From Nitrospirota bacterium (lineage in GTDB: Bacteria > Nitrospirota > Thermodesulfovibrionia > Thermodesulfovibrionales > Dissulfurispiraceae): a DNA stretch of 64,000 nucleotides. A program made the translations under genes and the position numbers. Where the stretch lies: the NCBI GenBank assembly GCA_040752355.1, contig JBFMHE010000018.1:1-64000 (forward strand). The letters run 5' to 3'. Below the pieces are notes generated by a model that was given only the letters and a program-made list of their open reading frames with translations, was not told where the DNA came from and made no database searches. Below are positions 43,200 to 50,545 of the stretch, piece by piece (position 1 is the stretch's first letter; every line of letters starts with the position of its first letter).

Positions 43200-44159
43200 C
43201 TAAAACGCCCAGCCCACCCCGAAGACGAGCCGGTAATCGAGCTCGTTCTGCTCGCCGTTAAGGTCCTGGAGCACCGGGATGCCGAGCGAGACATACGTCG
43301 AGAAGTGCCGGTCGAACGTGAGCCGGGCGCCCGGAGAGAGCAGGAGGGTATTCCCGCCGCTGTTTTCATCCTTGCGACCTGCCACCTCCTCTTTTTGCAG
43401 CCAGACACCGTTCCCCTCGATGATGAGATCGAGCTCAACCGGCCGTGCCAGTGCCCGGTACGAGAGGGCGAGATTGTACGAGAAGGTGTCGCCCAGGTCG
43501 GTCTCCTGCGCGCCTTCGGTCACGAGTGTATAGAGCAGGCTGGTATCGAGGGTGAAGCTGCCAAGCCTCTTCGTTGCCGCGATGCCGATCGAAGGGTCCC
43601 ACGACCCTGAGCCGGGCTGGAATTCCGTTTCGAAGGGTTCGCCGTGGTCATCCTTGTCCGTCGTCCTGCCGGTGGGGAGCTTGAGCCCGACGAGGAGCGT
43701 AGCCTCCAGGTCCTTTGCCGCGCTGCGGTAGAAACGGTGGTGGAGGTAGAGCGCGAGGTCGCCGAAGCCGTGCGCGTCGCCGTGGCGATGCGCCTCGTCA
43801 GGGGGCTCGCTCTCCTCTATGTTTTCCCGGCGGATATAGGGAATACGCGCGTGAATGGTCGTGGCGTCCGTTATGCCGTAGCCGATGCCGATGATATACC
43901 GCATAACGGATTCCATGTTATGGACTTCGGTGTCCTGCTCCGCGAAGCGGATGAGCTCGGCTTCGGAAAAGGTATCGAACCGGAGGTACTCCGCCTGGGC
44001 CTCGATGCTGAACTGATGCTTCTCGAGCACCGCAGCGGAAACGGTAGTGATCGGCCCCGCATGCCCTGTTCCCGGAGTGACCGCAATATGCGTCGCCCGG
44101 GCGCTGCCGGCAGAAAGCATGAGAAGAAGAACGGCCAGAACAACTCTCCTGCGCATCAT
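43200..44159 (-). CDS. Outer-membrane beta-barrel, phenol-degradation transporter (MetA-pathway) type
   Basis: This 319-aa protein starts at ATG 44159 (second Met 44156) with GAGGAGG five bases upstream. The signal peptide ends near ARATH. The rest is a barrel with alternating hydrophobic strands: QFSIEAQAEYLRFDTF, RYIIGIGYGITDATTIHARIPYIRRENIEE, ALYLHHRFY, LEATLLVGLKLPTGRTTDKD and a terminal aromatic strand LDYRLVFGVGWAF. This pattern matches the transporter/MetA-pathway family of outer-membrane proteins. The substrate is unknown. Confidence 0.8.
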   Translation of the reverse strand: MMRRRVVLAVLLLMLSAGSARATHIAVTPGTGHAGPITTVSAAVLEKHQFSIEAQAEYLRFDTFSEAELIRFAEQDTEVHNMESVMRYIIGIGYGITDATTIHARIPYIRRENIEESEPPDEAHRHGDAHGFGDLALYLHHRFYRSAAKDLEATLLVGLKLPTGRTTDKDDHGEPFETEFQPGSGSWDPSIGIAATKRLGSFTLDTSLLYTLVTEGAQETDLGDTFSYNLALSYRALARPVELDLIIEGNGVWLQKEEVAGRKDENSGGNTLLLSPGARLTFDRHFSTYVSLGIPVLQDLNGEQNELDYRLVFGVGWAF

Positions 44160-44287
44160 GATCGCCTCCTCGTGACATCTCTTTCGGTCCATGCTATCAC
44201 AAAGGAGACGGAAAGGTAACCCGGCACCGCAAAATCCGGGAGCGGATCTGAGGTACAATAGTCTCATCTCTCGTGAAAGGAAAAGCT

Positions 44288-44725
44288 ATGAATACCGTCT
44301 TCCTCTTCATCGCGATGTTCTTTGCCGGCGTGACTGTCGCCGTACAGCCGTCGATCAATGCCCGCCTCGCCCAGAAGGTAGGGGTCGTGGAGAGCTCCTT
44401 CTTCTCGTTTCTCGTGGGGACCCTGGCGATGCTCGTTGTCGTGCTCGTCAGCGGCCGCGGCTCGCTCAAGGCAGTTACCGGGGCATCATGGTGGGAGTTG
44501 ACCGGGGGGCTCCTGGGCGCCTTCTTCGTCTCGATGACCATCGTCGCGGTCCCCAGGATAGGGACGGCATCGACAATGGCGGCGGTAATCACCGCTCAGC
44601 TAATCACCGGCCTCGCTCTCGACAGGTCGGGGCTCTTCGGCCTGAGGATCATTCCTCTCGATGCGCCGCGCATCCTCGGCGCCGCACTCCTCCTGACCGG
44701 CGCCTTCCTCATCTTCAAGAGATAG
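44288..44725 (+). CDS. DMT-superfamily (YdcZ/DUF606-type) transporter
   Basis: This 145-aa protein starts at ATG 44288 behind AAAGGAAAAG and has five hydrophobic segments. MFFAGVTVAVQPSINARLAQKVGVVESSFFSFLVGTLAML and LTGGLLGAFFVSMTIVAVPRIGTASTMAAVITAQLITGL are typical of the DUF606/YdcZ half-size drug/metabolite transporters. No partner half-transporter is adjacent, so homodimerisation is likely. Confidence 0.85.
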   Translation: MNTVFLFIAMFFAGVTVAVQPSINARLAQKVGVVESSFFSFLVGTLAMLVVVLVSGRGSLKAVTGASWWELTGGLLGAFFVSMTIVAVPRIGTASTMAAVITAQLITGLALDRSGLFGLRIIPLDAPRILGAALLLTGAFLIFKR

Positions 44726-44833
44726 CGCGCTCTCCAAAATGAATCCGGCTGCGCGAGCAGCCGGATGAACGTTGCGATATCGTATGGAGAAGGAGGACAG
44801 GACCGGGTTCACGCAACCCAGCAGCTCCACCTA

Positions 44834-45103
44834 TCAGGTCCTGCGGGATGCAGCTGTCGGCGCGGCCTCGGGATGCCGGATGAGCTTGAGCGAGTGTGCC
44901 AGGATATACAGCGCCCCGACCCCCACCAGCGTATAGATGATCCTGGAGAAGGCCGACATATCGCCGAATATGGCTGCCACAAGGTCGAACCCGAAGAGCC
45001 CGATGAGGCCCCAGTTGATCCCGCCGATGATCACGAGGATCAGCGAAATCCAGTCAAAGGTATTGAGCTTTCTTACACCGTTACTTTCGTACACTTCAGC
45101 CAT
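44834..45103 (-). CDS. DUF378 family small membrane protein
   Basis: This 89-aa protein has two hydrophobic segments (LNTFDWISLILVIIGGINWGLIGLFGFDLVAAIFG and SRIIYTLVGVGALYILAHSL). The GGINWGLIGLFGFDLV motif is the DUF378 signature. The function is unknown. AGGGGAGGATACT stands before the start. The following 296 bases to 45400 hold no supported gene. Confidence 0.88.
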   Translation of the reverse strand: MAEVYESNGVRKLNTFDWISLILVIIGGINWGLIGLFGFDLVAAIFGDMSAFSRIIYTLVGVGALYILAHSLKLIRHPEAAPTAASRRT

Positions 45104-45399
45104 AGTATCCTCCCCTTTTTTGTCCGCCAGGGCAATCGCCGCTCCCGCAGGAGGCGGGAGGGATCCCCTGTTTTATGTGTCCTGTCCTCCCTCTATAGAT
45201 GCGAGGGCGTCATCTCCTCTGCCCGAGCTCTGCCGGGACTGTCCAGAGGGACCCTTCCCTCCGGGGGAGCTGCTGAATCTCCTCTTCCTAAAAGTCTACC
45301 GCAGTCGTATAAAAATTCAACATGGGCGCACAAGGGATCGAAAGGAATGAATTTTCCAGGGAGCTTTTCTGGTTGGAAGCCCCCCGGCGGTCCACGCGG

Positions 45400-46254
45400 T
45401 CAGCGGAGCATCAGGAAGTCGGTATCTTTTTCAGTTACCCCGCCCTGCTCCGCTGTTCCGGGCACCTCAGGGAGGACCACCGAGACGACATTCCCGCTGC
45501 CCTGCCTCCTGATCTGCTCGGGAATCGCCCGCTTCCAGGCATGCACCGTCCCGGCGAGGACTACCATCGTACGGTCGGGATTGTTCTGCAGGAACTCGAG
45601 CGCGTTCAGCGCCATCGCATTGTCCCATATCATCTGGGCCTCGCAGAAATTTACGAACTCTTTCCCGTGCGCGTGTGCCGAATGCATACTCCTGATGAAC
45701 TCCATGTAGGCCTCATCGATAGTGCAGCTGATACCGGAAGGCAGCTGCCGGCGCTCCTCTTCCGTCAGGGAGTCGAACCCCTCTTTCGCCACCTTCGTCG
45801 TGATCGAGCGCGGTACATTGAGGCCGACGAGCGGGATGTCGTGCTCGCGTGCATAGAGCAAGATATCGCTATAGAGAGGCCATGGCAGGTTCCAGTTCTC
45901 GTAATAGATGGGGAGGAACTGCTCCAGGCTCAGCTTCCCTTCTATCCATTTGTTGAGGGCACCCTGGCTGCCGGCGGTGAACATCTCGAGCCCGATCGCG
46001 AGGGGAACACCCTTTTCATGCAGCGTCCTGATCACCTTGAGCTGGAGCTCGTGATGCCGGGGATCGGTATGGCTCTCGCCGACGACGATGATGTCGGCAT
46101 CCTGCTTGTCCCGCATCATCTGGTCAAAGGTGATGACCCGCTTGTCCTGCATCCGGAGCACCCTCTCATAGGAGAATACATTGATCGCAAAAATGAGCAT
46201 GCCGGCTAGTGCGGCCGTAAGTATCAGGATGAAAAACCTGCGCTTTGGATTCAT
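45400..46254 (-). CDS. ChaN-type (Tiki/TraB-like) membrane-anchored protein
   Basis: This 284-aa protein starts at ATG 46254 (AGGAGG seven bases upstream; an upstream extension to 46410 is rejected). An N-terminal anchor (FFILILTAALAGMLIFAINVFS) is followed by a ChaN/DUF399 domain: DADIIVVGESHTDPRHHELQLKVIRTL, IGLEMFTAG, WNLPWPLYSDILLYAREHDIPLVGLN and VVLAGTVHAWKRAIPEQI. ChaN binds heme-like iron and belongs to the Tiki/EreA superfamily with conserved GE..H and H motifs. The exact reaction is unknown. It is divergent from the selenobiotic locus. Confidence 0.88.
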   Translation of the reverse strand: MNPKRRFFILILTAALAGMLIFAINVFSYERVLRMQDKRVITFDQMMRDKQDADIIVVGESHTDPRHHELQLKVIRTLHEKGVPLAIGLEMFTAGSQGALNKWIEGKLSLEQFLPIYYENWNLPWPLYSDILLYAREHDIPLVGLNVPRSITTKVAKEGFDSLTEEERRQLPSGISCTIDEAYMEFIRSMHSAHAHGKEFVNFCEAQMIWDNAMALNALEFLQNNPDRTMVVLAGTVHAWKRAIPEQIRRQGSGNVVSVVLPEVPGTAEQGGVTEKDTDFLMLR

Positions 46255-46520
46255 GCTGCGCCTCCTCTCGAAAGAGCCTGCTGCTGCGCGGGGCTCTTCC
46301 TGCATTCTATACGATACGCGGCTCCCGGGGAAGGGAGTGGCTGGCGGGTGTCTGCGCTGCTGGCGGTCATCGTATACCACAATACTAGCAACAGGGCGGT
46401 ACAGGGTCAAGAAGGACGAGGGAATGCTTCTGGCAGAGGGCCGGCATTGACAGGAGCTCTTTTTTGACTTAGGCTCAGAAGATAAAGAGGAGTATACTTT
46501 AACGGAAAGGAGGGCAGGAC

Positions 46521-46838
46521 ATGGATCAGAAAGAGCTCAAGAGACTTCTGGCAGGATTGGGCCTGGCAGGGCTGATCGCCGGCGCCGGTCTGGCAATCGG
46601 CCCCGGCAGCGCACGGGGCAGCAGCGGTTGAGGCCAGAGCGGCTGAAGCAGCTCATCCAGTGCCGGCGGCACTGAGAAAAAGGCAGCAGACCGGAAGAAA
46701 GCGGGACAGAGCGACGGCAGCACGGCAGGCCAGGCAGCCCCTGCGGAAAAGCCCGCTGACGAGCCGGGAAAAGAAGAACAGAAGGCCGATGACCAGAAAA
46801 AAGCGGGACAGAGCGGCTGCAGCGGCAGCAAGCAGTAG
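46521..46838 (+). CDS. Selenobiotic (SbtA-like) RiPP precursor with two in-frame TGA (Sec) codons
   Basis: ATG 46521 follows AAAGGAGG by seven bases. The leader MDQKELKRLLAGLGLAGLIA and the following Gly/Ala stretch (to residue 34) match the hydrophobic leader of SbtA-type precursors. TGA codons at 46629-46631 and 46644-46646 encode residues 37 and 42, giving SSGUGQSGUSS where U is Sec. The frame then stays open for 63 more codons to TAG 46836-46838 and ends in KKAGQSGCSGSKQ, where TGC (46818) occupies the third equivalent core position. An intermediate KKAGQSDG also occurs. The open, Lys/Ala/Gln-rich continuation and the radical SAM maturase starting 1 base after the stop argue strongly for readthrough. 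Family knowledge: SbtA/SbtM pairs were described as radical SAM systems with selenocysteine-containing targets. The modified product and its use are unknown. Confidence 0.9.
46658..46674 (+). promoter_or_regulatory. Candidate bacterial SECIS hairpin
   Basis: CAGTGCC (46658-46664) pairs with GGCACTG (46668-46674) around GGC, within the precursor frame. The loop begins 18 bases after the second TGA and 33 bases after the first, both inside the 16-37 window usually given for bacterial SECIS elements, and its first bases are G as the model expects. Confidence 0.6.
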
Positions 46839-46839
46839 G

Positions 46840-48342
46840 GTGCAGGAAGCGGGAGGGGACCATGTCCTCTCCCGTAACCGCAGGAGAGCGCTGATCGGCG
46901 CCCCGGGCCTCCCTGCGTATCGTTCTGATCTCGCCCGTATCGAGCAGACCCTTTCGAGGCTGAGGACAGCCGATCTCCCGAAGGAGGTCACCTGCCGCAT
47001 GGTCAACCCGACCGTCTCGGTCATCAGGTGCTCCTGGAAGAACCTGCTGCCGCTCCTGGAACGGAATGCAAACGGTGAAGAGCGGGCGCCCGAAGAGGGC
47101 GAAGAGATTCTGCTGCTCTGGAAGATGCCCGGCGCAGGCGATGTCCGGTACAAAGTCGCCTCATCCGAAGATCTCCTTGCGCTCAAGATGGTCTTCGAGG
47201 ACCGGGCTGCATCGGCGGTCGCTGCCGAGGCAGCCCTGCCGGTCGGCGCGGTCGATGCAGCCCTGGACCGTGCGGCAGAACAGGGTATCCTGCTCGCCCC
47301 TCCCTCCCTGCTCAGGCGGGACCCTGCGCTCTTCCACAGAGGGCAGCGGGACGACCGCTTTCTCAGCACCTCGGTCTTTACCCTTCAATGGCACATCACC
47401 CAGGCCTGCGATCTTCACTGCAAGCACTGCTATGACCGCAGCGCGCGGAGCACGGTTCCCCTGGAGCAGGCCTTCGGCGTGCTCGACGATCTGCGGAGCT
47501 TCTGCCGCAGCAGGGGCGTGAGCGGACAGGTCTCGTTTACCGGGGGAAACCCGCTCCTCCATCCCCATTTTACCGAGCTGTACCGTGCCGCAGTCGAGCG
47601 GGGCCTCACCGTCGCCATTCTCGGGAATCCCTCCACCCGCAAAGCGCTCGAAGAGCTCGCCGCCATACAGCGCCCCGCTTTTTTCCAGGTGAGCCTCGAA
47701 GGGCTCCTCGAGCACAACGACGCAATCCGCGGTCCGGGACACTTCGACCGCGTCATCGATTTTCTCCGCCTGCTCCGGGAGCTCGATATCTACTCCATGG
47801 TGATGCTCACCCTGACGAGGAACAACATGGAGCAGGTGCTGCCGCTCGCCGACCTCCTCCGCGGCATAACCGACACCTTCACCTTCAACCGCCTCTCCGC
47901 AGTAGGCGAAGGGGCGCGCCTGCAGCCGGTTCCGGTCGAGATCTACCCCGCCTTTCTCGAGCGCTACGCCGAGGCAGCCGAGGAGAACCCCATCATGGGG
48001 CTCAAGGACAGCCTCATCAATATCCTGCACCAGCGCAAGGGGCTCGAGCTCTTCGGCGGCTGTGCGGGCTTCGGCTGCGGGGCTGCCTTCAATTTCGCTG
48101 CGCTCCTGCCGGACGGCGAGGTGCACGCCTGCAGAAAGTTCCCCTCCCCTATCGGCACGATCAACACCCGGGGCCTTGCCGAAATCTACGACTCAGCCGA
48201 GGCCCGGCGATACCGGGAGGGATGCAGCGCCTGCGCTCCCTGCCCCCTCCGGCCGGTCTGCGGCGGCTGCCTCGCCGTTGCTCACAGTGCGGGAAAGAAT
48301 ATATTCAAAGAGCGTGACCCGTATTGTTTTGTCGAACCCTAA
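46840..48342 (+). CDS. Selenobiotic-type radical SAM/SPASM peptide maturase (SbtM-like)
   Basis: About 500 aa long, starting at GTG 46840 just after the precursor stop (start uncertain: no clear ribosome binding site, and reinitiation is likely; the frame is open upstream to 46660). The N-terminal domain (GAPGLPAYRSDLARIEQTL) is a precursor-recognition-type region. The radical SAM core has CDLHCKHC (CX3CX2C) and SFTGGNPLLHP. The C-terminal SPASM region has CAGFGCGAAFNFAALLPDGEVHACRKFPSPIGTI and CSACAPCPLRPVCGGC...YCF for auxiliary iron-sulfur clusters. It should modify the adjacent precursor at Sec/Cys. It is the last gene of the locus. Confidence 0.9.
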   Translation: MQEAGGDHVLSRNRRRALIGAPGLPAYRSDLARIEQTLSRLRTADLPKEVTCRMVNPTVSVIRCSWKNLLPLLERNANGEERAPEEGEEILLLWKMPGAGDVRYKVASSEDLLALKMVFEDRAASAVAAEAALPVGAVDAALDRAAEQGILLAPPSLLRRDPALFHRGQRDDRFLSTSVFTLQWHITQACDLHCKHCYDRSARSTVPLEQAFGVLDDLRSFCRSRGVSGQVSFTGGNPLLHPHFTELYRAAVERGLTVAILGNPSTRKALEELAAIQRPAFFQVSLEGLLEHNDAIRGPGHFDRVIDFLRLLRELDIYSMVMLTLTRNNMEQVLPLADLLRGITDTFTFNRLSAVGEGARLQPVPVEIYPAFLERYAEAAEENPIMGLKDSLINILHQRKGLELFGGCAGFGCGAAFNFAALLPDGEVHACRKFPSPIGTINTRGLAEIYDSAEARRYREGCSACAPCPLRPVCGGCLAVAHSAGKNIFKERDPYCFVEP

Positions 48343-48350
48343 GAGCAGGC

Positions 48351-48665
48351 TTACGGCTTCAGCACCGCTATCGTCGCTCCCCAGCTGCCGGCGTCCCCTC
48401 CGGCGAGCCTGAAGGAGCGCACCTCGGGCATACGCCTGAGCAGAGAATGCACGGTCTCGCGGAGCGTGCCGCTGCCTTTGCCGTGAATAATGCGGATTTC
48501 GAGTATGCCCCGTTCCCGGCAGGCCTCTATGTAGGCCGGGAGCAGGGTCTTCAGATCTTTCGGGCTGAAGGTGTGGAGATCGAGCACGCCGTCGATGGGA
48601 AGATCGAGAGGCGGCTGATCTTCCGGATGGAGATCAGGCGGAGGGAGATCGGGGTCATGCGCCAC
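48351..48665 (-). CDS. Smr-domain protein
   Basis: This 104-aa protein has an acidic/Pro-rich N-terminus and a single Smr domain: VLDLHTFSPKDLKTLLPAYIEACRERGILEIRIIHGKGSGTLRETVHSLL. The LDLH and HGKGSG motifs of Smr nucleic-acid binding/nuclease domains are intact. Stand-alone Smr proteins may act on RNA or branched DNA. It starts 2 bases after the Lrp-like gene stop, so the two form an operon. It converges on the maturase gene. Confidence 0.88.
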   Translation of the reverse strand: MAHDPDLPPPDLHPEDQPPLDLPIDGVLDLHTFSPKDLKTLLPAYIEACRERGILEIRIIHGKGSGTLRETVHSLLRRMPEVRSFRLAGGDAGSWGATIAVLKP

Positions 48666-48667
48666 GG

Positions 48668-48946
48668 TTATGCGAGCCCGATATGGAACATGGACTCAAG
48701 GTCGTGGCGGGAGTAGACGCGGTAGGCCATGAGGGTCTGGGACTTCACGATACCCTCCACCTTGAGCAGGTGGTTGGTCACGAGCTCGGCGAGTTCTTCA
48801 TTCTCGGCAACGCGGATAACGGCGACGAGATCGTAGATGCCCGCCACCGAGTAGACTTCCGTAACTCCCTTCATATCCGCGAGCTGCTCGGCAACCTGAT
48901 TAATCTTGTCCCGCTCCACGTTCAGGAGCGCAAGCGCCGTGATCAT
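48668..48946 (-). CDS. Lrp/AsnC ligand-binding (RAM) domain protein without DNA-binding domain
   Basis: This 92-aa protein consists only of the C-terminal effector/oligomerisation domain of Lrp/AsnC regulators: ITALALLNVERDKINQVAEQLADMKGVTEVYSVAGIYDLVAVIRVAENEELAELVTNHLLKVEGIVKSQTLMAYRVYSR. The helix-turn-helix is absent, so it probably binds an amino acid or modulates another protein. Stand-alone RAM proteins are common. It starts the two-gene operon with the Smr gene. Confidence 0.92.
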   Translation of the reverse strand: MITALALLNVERDKINQVAEQLADMKGVTEVYSVAGIYDLVAVIRVAENEELAELVTNHLLKVEGIVKSQTLMAYRVYSRHDLESMFHIGLA

Positions 48947-49089
48947 AGGAACCCTCCTTCATGCCGGATTAATACAGATGGAATGCAGCCTAGAGCAATT
49001 ATGGCATCGGCCCCCATGGATTGCAATAAGCGCGGCGTGAACGCAGGGGAAACGAGCGAGAGAGGAAGAGGGCGGAAGGGGGAGCCGAA

Positions 49090-49136
49090 GACCAAAAAAG
49101 GCAATGCAGGTGACCCTGCGACTGCCTTTTTTGGTC
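49090..49136 (-). terminator. Terminator of the SWIB/H1-like gene
   Basis: GACCAAAAAAGGCA (49090-49103) pairs with TGCCTTTTTTGGTC (49123-49136). An additional internal GCAGG/CCTGC hairpin extends the structure. It lies just downstream of the minus-strand gene at 49156. Confidence 0.85.
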
Positions 49137-49155
49137 TACGCTATCGGCGCAGTAA

Positions 49156-49602
49156 CTAGCTCAGGTGCTTGTTGACCAGCTTGGTCATCTCGAACATCGA
49201 GACCTGGCCCTTGCCGCCGAATACCGCCTTGAGGTTCTCATCGGCATTGATGTTCCTCTTGTTCACCTTGTCCTGCAGGCCGTTCTTCCTGATGTACTCC
49301 CACAGCTTCTTGGTCACTTCCGTTCTCGGGATCGGCTTGCTGCCGACAACCCTGGCGAGGACGGGGCTGATGTTGACCGGCTTCATGAATTCAGGATTCG
49401 GTTTCCTCTTGGTCTTCACCTTTTTTGCAGCCGGCTTCTTGGCGGGTTTCTTTGCTGCTTTCTTTACAGCGGGTTTCTTTGCTGCCTTCTTCGCGGCGGG
49501 TTTCTTTGCTGCTTTCTTGGCGGGCTTCTTTGCGGCTTTCTTTGCAGCGGGTTTCTTTGCTGCCTTCTTCGCAGGCTTCTTTGCTGCTTTCTTTGTTGCC
49601 AT
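49156..49602 (-). CDS. SWIB-domain protein with histone H1-like AAKKPA repeats
   Basis: This 148-aa protein starts at ATG 49602 behind GAGGAGGT. Residues 2-70 are a Lys/Ala/Pro-rich tail of AAKKP(A) repeats like eukaryotic H1 and bacterial HctB/AlgP. Residues 75-148 form a SWIB/MDM2 domain (KPVNISPVLARVVGSKPIPRTEVTKKLWEYIRKNGLQDKVNKRNINADENLKAVFG). Such SWIB-plus-basic-tail proteins occur in chlamydiae and several Gram-negative phyla and probably compact or organise DNA. It is monocistronic with its own terminator. Confidence 0.93.
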   Translation of the reverse strand: MATKKAAKKPAKKAAKKPAAKKAAKKPAKKAAKKPAAKKAAKKPAVKKAAKKPAKKPAAKKVKTKRKPNPEFMKPVNISPVLARVVGSKPIPRTEVTKKLWEYIRKNGLQDKVNKRNINADENLKAVFGGKGQVSMFEMTKLVNKHLS

Positions 49603-49804
49603 TCTTACCTCCTCGGTTTTTAAAAAATATCGAAGCAATGAGGCCAACCGTTAATCACGAACATACTACCAATATCTGCGACCAGCGTCAAGAGAAAAAT
49701 TGAAAGGATTACAGAGGGGAACGCGCCCCCGACAGAGGCGGCCTGCGCAGGGAGGGCGAAGTGCTATAATGAGGATAGATATTCATCGTTTCCGGGAGGA
49801 GCAT

Positions 49805-50545
49805 ATGAGAAGCATCAGGCAGTTCGTCACCATGGCGGTTCTCCTTGTTTTCGTCGTTTCCTGCGGCACTGCCTATAAGGCGCAGCCGCTCCCCTTCAAG
49901 CCGCCTGCAGCCTACCCGAATGCCCAGGAGGTTGCCGGCACGCTGGTCGGCGCAAAGGCGTATGCGGACCGCGCCGAAGCGCAGGAGGCCTTCGGGTTCG
50001 ATGTGCTCGGTGCGGGAATGCTGCCGGTGCAGGTGGTGTTCGACAACCAGGGGAGCCACCCGCTGGTCGTGAATTCCGAGCAGACCTTTCTCGAGGACAG
50101 GGAGGGGAACCTCTGGCCGATCCTTTCGAGCGAGCTCGCGCATGAGCGCGCGACGAAGTACGCCACGACCAAAGAGGTCTTCAAGAAGGGCGCCTACAAG
50201 GGGTTCCTCGGCGCCACCGCCGGCGCGCTCATCGGGGCGGCGATCGGCATTGTCGGCGGGGGCAATGTAGGAGAGGCGGCCGGGAAGGGCGCGGCGATCG
50301 GCGCTGCAGGCGGCGGCGTTATCGGCGGCGCGCAGGCGTATGAACGCGACGCCCGCGAGGCGCGCCGGAATATCATGGAAGACCTCAGGCAGAAGTCGCT
50401 CCAGAACAAGACGGTCGATCCCAAGAATCTCGCTTACGGCATCATCTTCTTCCCGGGAGAGGCGCCGTCGGCACGGCAGCTCAGGCTCCAGCTCGTCGAA
50501 AAGGATACCGGGAGGTCCCATGTCCTTCTCCTGGATTTGCGGTGA
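49805..50545 (+). CDS. Lipoprotein with glycine-zipper segment
   Basis: This 246-aa protein starts at ATG 49805 behind GGGAGGAG; an upstream extension is rejected. The signal peptide ends in lipobox VVSC. The domain (residues 40-120) carries PVQVVFDNQGSHPLVVNSEQTFLEDREGNLWPI. A Gly-rich zipper (GATAGALIGAAIGIVGGGNVGEAAGKGAAIGAAGGGVIGG) then suggests membrane insertion or oligomerisation, followed by a C-terminal strand-rich tail. The function is unknown. The arfB start overlaps its stop (GTGA). Confidence 0.8.
   Translation: MRSIRQFVTMAVLLVFVVSCGTAYKAQPLPFKPPAAYPNAQEVAGTLVGAKAYADRAEAQEAFGFDVLGAGMLPVQVVFDNQGSHPLVVNSEQTFLEDREGNLWPILSSELAHERATKYATTKEVFKKGAYKGFLGATAGALIGAAIGIVGGGNVGEAAGKGAAIGAAGGGVIGGAQAYERDAREARRNIMEDLRQKSLQNKTVDPKNLAYGIIFFPGEAPSARQLRLQLVEKDTGRSHVLLLDLR

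What the first reader, a model, noticed from the sequence alone, without database searches (positions are those of the whole stretch)
46521..46838. Selenobiotic-type precursor with two Sec (TGA) codons and a Cys-coded third core position
Seen: the frame from ATG 46521 reads through TGA at residues 37 and 42 and stays open for 63 more codons. The terminal KKAGQSGCS core repeats the GQSG-U-S pattern with TGC instead of TGA. The leader is SbtA-like and a radical SAM/SPASM maturase follows. Known: selenobiotic SbtA/SbtM pairs are defined as radical SAM systems with selenocysteine-containing targets. Inferred: this precursor gives a peptide with two Sec and one Cys, so a single molecule could test whether the maturase acts on Sec, Cys or both.
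Basis: partly seen in the sequence, partly recalled or inferred. Interest (0 to 1): 0.93.

Follow-up and report, generated by a model that had tools for sequence, protein, structure and literature searches.

The report
Tandem-selenocysteine peptide and its maturase
This bacterial gene pair encodes a small peptide with two in-frame UGA codons, both likely read as selenocysteine with the help of one shared RNA hairpin, and one cysteine at a site that was likely once selenocysteine, next to an enzyme predicted to turn such residues into rings; it is a variant of a known system whose relatives suggest how selenium sites are gained and lost.

Summary
The frame 46521-46838 reads through TGA at residues 37 and 42, ends in GQSGCSGSKQ, matches the SbtA precursor model above its cut-off, and is followed by an SbtM maturase at twice its cut-off; the genome has SelA, SelB, SelD and a UCA tRNA-Sec. 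Mixed Sec/Cys precursors recur (13 of 118 examined). What I add is at the RNA level. A covariant SECIS-type hairpin stands 16-24 nt after 88 of 113 internal SbtA UGAs, far above synonymous shuffles. In the window one hairpin lies 17 nt after the second UGA and 32 nt after the first, which has none of its own; 9 of 20 close UGA pairs show this. In one sister pair the shared 15-nt hairpin is missing where both TGAs are TGC. The window's Cys codon is followed by what looks like half of a decayed hairpin. That one hairpin decodes two Sec codons is inferred, not shown; export and metal binding are weaker proposals.

The parts
46521..46838 (+). sbtA precursor, 105 aa with two predicted Sec; stop TAG at 46836-46838
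46521..46598 (+). SbtA leader (TIGR04081 positions 1-26), hydrophobic and signal-peptide-like, without a lipobox
46629..46631 (+). TGA codon 37, predicted Sec, no hairpin of its own at 16-24 nt
46644..46646 (+). TGA codon 42, predicted Sec
46658..46674 (+). predicted bacterial SECIS hairpin CAGTGC-CGGCG-GCACTG; the 5-base loop starts 17 nt after TGA 42 and 32 nt after TGA 37 (18 and 33 if the loop is taken as GGC)
   Evidence: family covariation
46695..46721 (+). degenerate core unit KKAGQSDGS (residues 59-67), chalcogen residue absent
   Evidence: sequence; no unusual fold in 46710-46770
46797..46823 (+). C-terminal core unit KKAGQSGCS with TGC codon 100 at 46818-46820
46839..46852 (+). apparent remnant of a C-terminal SECIS: GGTGCAGGAAGCGG just after the stop codon, 5' arm and loop start kept, 3' arm lost
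46840..48342 (+). sbtM radical SAM/SPASM maturase (start GTG 46840 proposed; the protein database holds the window's own protein as 517 aa, which would start 17 codons further up)
46849..46875 (+). strong 12-bp hairpin between the two genes; role unknown

Best explanation
This is an sbtA-sbtM pair in which both UGA codons of the precursor are likely decoded as selenocysteine by SelB with one shared SECIS hairpin, the C-terminal cysteine is likely a converted selenocysteine site whose own hairpin has decayed, and SbtM is predicted to oxidise these residues to selenooxazoles and a thiooxazole. Shown by sequence: the frame, both family matches, the Sec machinery genes, the hairpin 17 and 32 nt behind the two UGAs, and the recurrence of these features in relatives. 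Inferred: that Sec is inserted at both UGAs, that one hairpin serves both, that residue 100 was once Sec. Reported for a relative only: that SbtM treatment takes four hydrogens from Cys and Sec peptides. Proposed, weakly: the leader doubles as an export signal, and the finished peptide binds soft metals such as copper outside the cytoplasm, as thiooxazole bufferins do.
For: Family. Sec machinery. Co-occurrence in the phylum sample: SelA in 26 of 27 genomes with SbtM over the cut-off against 151 of 368 others, Fisher p 5e-9. Hairpin: 88 of 113 internal UGAs (63 precursors; 7 with long read-through tails left out) have a hairpin of -7.5 kcal/mol or better at 16-24 nt, against a mean of 25.9 and at most 32 in 60 synonymous-codon shuffles and 123 of 1961 other codons; in a second set 52 of 55. 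Covariation: the five inner pairs form in 99% of cells over 78 sites chosen by loop motif without looking at pairing and without the window, against 23-47% when slid. Sharing: the first UGA of a close pair has no hairpin reaching -7.5 kcal/mol at 16-24 nt in the window, L028, L071, L079, L103, L138, L145 and L158, and only one overlapping the second's in L144. L103 against its sister L042 (support 99): the 15-nt hairpin is absent from L042 and both codons are TGC. Remnant: stop codon then GTGCAGG, as behind C-terminal UGAs of relatives.
Against: No protein or RNA data. Of 20 close TGA pairs listed (14, 6), 7 have a hairpin for each TGA (L078, L082, L084, L108, L112, L139, L152), 3 look like Sec followed by a true TGA stop (L032, L076, L095; the second TGA of L076 has a weaker overlapping hairpin) and 1 has none (L115), so sharing is not a rule, and the nine sharing cases are not all independent lineages (L138 and L158 are alike). 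25 of 113 internal UGAs fail the hairpin test. A hairpin does not prove Sec: the TGC of L147 has a full one, and 9 of 48 Cys codons pass the looser 16-37 nt test, among them the window's own Cys 100, through the intergenic hairpin at 37 nt. The direction of change between L103 and L042 is open: their next relative L046 is all-Cys. The window's SbtM lacks about 40 N-terminal residues that most relatives show, so the pair could be decaying. G140 has SbtM and UGA precursors but no SelA match. The export idea rests on lipoboxes that the window's precursor lacks; AxA sites were not beyond shuffles.
Confidence: 0.72

Rival explanations
1. Only the second UGA is a SECIS-directed Sec codon; the first is passed by ordinary near-cognate read-through or takes another residue, so the peptide has one Sec and one Cys.
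For: UGA 37 has no hairpin of its own at 16-24 nt. That UGA-hairpin spacing is fairly strict in E. coli is recalled, not from a call.
Against: The arrangement recurs in nine precursors with an S/T/G-S/G-U context, and in L042 both codons are TGC where the one hairpin is missing. The published model allows 16-37 nt between UGA and loop; 32 nt lies inside it.
Confidence: 0.2
2. The pair is decaying: the core has lost one chalcogen site, turned one to Cys and lost its hairpin, and the maturase has lost its N-terminus, so little or no product is made.
For: Degenerate unit at residues 59-67, remnant hairpin, missing N-terminal segment and a 1-base gap before the proposed SbtM start.
Against: SbtM still scores twice the family cut-off over profile positions 40-516, the remaining hairpin is strong, and some other SbtM also appear to lack that segment (L033/L075, L099, L105, L109).
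Confidence: 0.15
3. Both TGAs are true stops and the product is a 36-residue leader-like peptide; the downstream frame is noise.
For: No expression data exclude it; TGA is the ordinary stop codon of table 11.
Against: Sec-type cores in 111 of 118 precursors (98 all-Sec, 13 mixed), covariant hairpins at a fixed distance, Sec machinery.
Confidence: 0.04

Closest known systems
Thio(seleno)oxazole (selenobiotic) RiPPs, SbtA TIGR04081 with SbtM TIGR04082
   Same: Leader, maturase, in-frame TGAs in S-G-U-G/S motifs, Sec machinery in the genome
   Different: One hairpin for two UGAs (seen in 9 precursors in all), a Cys-coded C-terminal core with a remnant hairpin, and an SbtM without the usual N-terminal segment
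Bacterial SECIS elements (model in PMC13188914) and bacterial selenoproteins with close Sec pairs (UxxU entries in the same review)
   Same: Small apical loop with G in the first two places, stem, energy and spacing within the model; close Sec pairs are listed in other bacterial proteins
   Different: Here one element is seen behind two UGAs 5 codons apart, with a sister gene in which hairpin and both UGAs are gone together; the review passages seen do not say whether UxxU proteins share a hairpin
Bufferins (MNIO-modified, copper-binding thiooxazole peptides; PMC12452194)
   Same: Cys-derived thiooxazole reported for both; many SbtA leaders carry a lipobox, and bufferins have Sec-pathway or lipoprotein signal peptides
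   Different: Radical SAM instead of MNIO enzyme, selenocysteine instead of cysteine at most sites, metal binding and export untested

Membership tests
SbtA precursor (TIGR04081) | Leader scores above the curated cut-off | tested here: met
   43.6 bits against 30.5; only match in the genome
SbtA precursor (TIGR04081) | Sec or Cys core motifs after the leader | tested here: met
   SSGUG, QSGUS, QSGCS; family comparison
SbtM maturase (TIGR04082) | Radical SAM/SPASM protein above the curated cut-off, next to sbtA | tested here: met
   697 bits against 350; Pfam
SbtM maturase (TIGR04082) | Full length including the N-terminal segment | tested here: not met
   Match starts at profile position 40 of 516; segment absent. 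The curated score, which decides membership, is still passed
Selenocysteine-decoding host | SelA, SelB, SelC, SelD present | tested here: met
Bacterial SECIS model | Loop 3-9 nt, G in the first two places, 16-37 nt from UGA, -7.5 kcal/mol or better | tested here: met
   -12.0 kcal/mol at 18 and 33 nt with the 3-base loop; model
Thio(seleno)oxazole RiPP product | Four-hydrogen loss and oxazole ring on Sec or Cys | not testable with these tools
   Reported for a relative only (passage)
Bufferin | Modified by an MNIO enzyme encoded alongside | tested here: not met
   The gene alongside is a radical SAM/SPASM protein; the genome was not searched for MNIO genes

The most novel reading that the evidence does not exclude
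One bacterial SECIS hairpin recodes two UGA codons at once: SbtA genes use a 15-nt hairpin cassette that turns one or two neighbouring codons into selenocysteine, and its loss or decay goes with the switch of those codons to cysteine, while the maturase keeps working on either chalcogen.
Probability: 0.5. Interest if true: 0.66.

Novelty: new variant of a known kind. Interest (0 to 1): 0.52.

Why it matters
Bacterial Sec insertion is usually described (recalled) as one hairpin just behind one UGA. If one hairpin serves two UGAs, SelB must deliver twice on one element, which would also bear on other close Sec pairs. SbtA precursors are also natural mutants: sister genes differ in hairpin and codon together, so Sec-to-Cys switching can be followed on a substrate whose enzyme is reported, for a relative, to accept both.

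Tried and rejected
Rfam scan of 44000-50000 with a loose threshold gave one far sub-threshold hit and no SECIS; I used the published bacterial model instead. A search for conserved neighbour genes in the flanks of the 75 named loci and the window gave SbtA itself and its antisense as the largest clusters; the rest, in 6 loci or fewer, were mostly synteny of close relatives or scattered, and I did not annotate them, so no partner gene supports a function. Expected and not found: all-Cys precursors only in genomes without SelA; of 15 genomes tested, 14 have SelA, including those of all-Cys L046 and L113; only that of L115 has none. Signal-peptide idea: lipobox in 54 of 118 leaders against a shuffled mean of 20.3 and maximum of 32, but strict AxA in 30 of 64 others against a shuffled mean of 22.4 and maximum of 35, not significant; my first, looser AxA rule (37 of 86) is uninformative in such Gly/Ala-rich leaders; Pfam's lipoprotein model LPAM_1 gave one hit below its cut-off among four leaders. 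A genome-wide alternative code for TGA was not tested. No covariance model and no structure prediction were made.

Rows left out: 16 of 103 sequences searched (102 loci and the window) gave no precursor; 9 short SbtM pieces were left out of the tree; 7 precursors with long read-through tails were left out of the shuffle test; of 37 hits in the second set 4 were known and one was a fragment. Terminal TGAs shortly after a core Sec were treated as possible stops.

Papers: PMC11002830, PMC12538549, PMC13188914, PMC1088965 and PMC12452194 were seen as passages only. Lewis et al. 2021 was seen only as a reference entry and through the passage in PMC11002830; it is not held. That one hairpin for two UGAs in bacteria is not in print rests on two searches of open-licence papers, so it is weak.

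Full report
What is there. The frame from ATG 46521 reads MDQKELKRLLAGLGLAGLIAGAGLAIGPGSARGSSGUGQSGUSSSSSAGGTEKKAADRKKAGQSDGSTAGQ...DDQKKAGQSGCSGSKQ-stop, with TGA at codons 37 and 42 and TGC at codon 100. The leader matches the SbtA model at 43.6 bits (cut-off 30.5) and the next gene the SbtM model at 697 bits (cut-off 350); Pfam sees Radical_SAM and SPASM. It is the only SbtA match in a 3.57-Mb, 44-contig genome listed as 100% complete. The genome holds SelA, SelB (356 bits), two SelD genes each with one in-frame TGA and a tRNA-Sec with anticodon TCA.

How common. SbtM passes its cut-off in 27 of 395 genomes drawn from the phylum. SelA is found in 26 of those 27, all but G140, and in 151 of the other 368 (Fisher p 5e-9). 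A protein search found 3129 relatives at E 1e-100 or better among the 7998 candidates scored; apart from the window's own entry the nearest is 65% identical. 75 loci came from a genome-contig scan. From 103 sequences (102 SbtM loci and the window) I extracted 86 distinct precursors, and from an SbtA search of 395 genomes of another phylum (39 with a match, 30 loci fetched) 32 more, after dropping 4 repeats and one fragment.

Sec and Cys. Of 118 precursors, 98 have only Sec cores, 13 mix Sec and Cys, 6 have only Cys by my motif rule (two of these, in L136 and L150, are doubtful) and 1 has neither. The window's pattern, two Sec then a C-terminal Cys, recurs in L147. L097 and L154 are the reverse: many Cys and one C-terminal Sec. 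So mixed precursors are a minority habit of the family, not a singularity. A review passage states that an SbtM was assayed with Cys and SeCys substrates and that both lost four hydrogens, with a thiooxazole seen by NMR for Cys (PMC11002830).

The hairpin. Scanning downstream of 230 in-frame TGAs of the 86 precursors (probable terminal stops included), hairpins with a G in the first two loop positions peak at 17-21 nt, with 80 of 230 at exactly 20 nt; 183 of 230 pass the 16-37 nt model, against 9 of 48 Cys codons. One of those 9 is the window's own Cys 100, through the intergenic hairpin 37 nt away. For internal UGAs alone 88 of 113 pass at 16-24 nt, against a mean of 25.9 and a maximum of 32 over 60 synonymous-codon shuffles and against 123 of 1961 other codons. 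In the second set 52 of 55 pass. At 78 sites chosen by loop motif alone and without the window, the five inner pairs form in 99% of cells, and in 23-47% when slid; stems such as GGTGC/GCACC, GGAGC/GCTCC, GGCGC/GCGCC and GACAC/GTGTC all occur. Several of these double changes alter the protein, so the GAGST-type peptide behind many Sec residues is likely dictated by the RNA hairpin (inference).

One hairpin, two UGAs. In the window the hairpin CAGTGC-CGGCG-GCACTG (46658-46674; -12.0 kcal/mol) begins its loop 17 nt behind TGA 42 and 32 nt behind TGA 37, and TGA 37 has no hairpin at 16-24 nt. In L028 and L079 the first TGA likewise has none, and in L071 and L103 only weak ones of -3.0 and -4.7 kcal/mol. 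L138, L145 and L158 have none for the first TGA, and in L144 the only one overlaps the second's. That is nine of 20 close TGA pairs listed. The other eleven are seven with a hairpin each, three that look like Sec followed by a true stop, and L115 with none. The second UGA and its hairpin could hardly be kept in nine genes if ribosomes stopped at the first UGA (inference). In L103 one hairpin follows TGA 40 and TGA 46; in its sister L042 (support 99) a 15-nt gap removes GGTGCAGGTAGCACC and both codons are TGC, while the two other TGAs keep their hairpins. Which state is older is open, since L046 next to them is all-Cys.

The cysteine. Behind the C-terminal UGA of relatives the hairpin often straddles or follows the stop codon, for example TAGTGCAGGTTGCACTAT; 43 of 60 such sites have GTGC within 42 nt. 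In the window the stop after QSGCSGSKQ is followed by GGTGCAGGAAGCGGG: 5' arm and loop start are kept, the 3' arm is gone. GTGCAGG occurs 17 times in the window on both strands, about 1.3e-4 per position, so meeting it by chance in the nine positions (12-20 nt behind the codon) that most matching relatives use is about 0.1% (my arithmetic, after the fact). L098 offers a parallel: its Cys 35 aligns with Sec 36 of sister L066 and keeps a weakened hairpin of -6.1 against -10.9 kcal/mol. L147 keeps a full hairpin behind its TGC, as expected of a recent switch, but this also shows that a hairpin alone does not prove Sec.

The maturase. Most SbtM proteins listed begin with a segment like IYPxCRSLLxxxxW; the window's match begins at profile position 40, and SbtA ends one base before the proposed GTG start. 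Where SbtA lies upstream, most others have 127-468 nt between its end and the start of the matching part; in the window the corresponding stretch is about 67 nt. In a few loci SbtA lies downstream of SbtM (for example L024, L097). A deletion taking the 3' half of the last hairpin together with the start of the maturase is possible but untested. A strong hairpin (46849-46875) sits at the join.

Function. Lipobox-like motifs occur in 54 of 118 leaders (shuffled mean 20.3, maximum 32), but AxA sites are not enriched and the window's leader has no lipobox. Bufferins are described as exported, Cys-derived thiooxazole peptides that sequester copper in the periplasm, some with predicted lipoprotein signals (PMC12452194 passages). 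I therefore propose, at about 0.3, that SbtA products are exported selenooxazole metal binders; nothing here tests it.

Verdict. A real member of a known system, in a variant form.

Noticed in passing
window 46840-46906: SbtM lacks an N-terminal segment of about 40 residues that most relatives show, and the genes are one base apart; a purine-rich, ribosome-binding-like stretch precedes an ATG at 46862 in another frame.
   Followed up: partly
window 46849-46875: A 12-bp hairpin with loop CAU lies between sbtA and the body of sbtM and would cover that ATG.
   Followed up: no
G000 C1:32143-33066 and C7:140007-140921: Two selD genes, each with one in-frame TGA, in the same genome.
   Followed up: no
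L115: An all-Cys SbtA with SbtM in a Planctomycetota MAG in which no SelA matched; its in-frame TGAs have no hairpin and are likely stops.
   Followed up: partly
L152: Two SbtA precursors in one locus, one with four UGAs at core-like positions and one all-Cys with four SGCGG cores.
   Followed up: no
L078, L082, L084, L108, L112, L139: Precursors ending UEG..SU with TGA directly before TAA; both TGAs have hairpins, suggesting Sec as the very last residue.
   Followed up: no
window, both strands: GTGCAGG occurs 17 times against 7.2 expected from shuffles.
   Followed up: no
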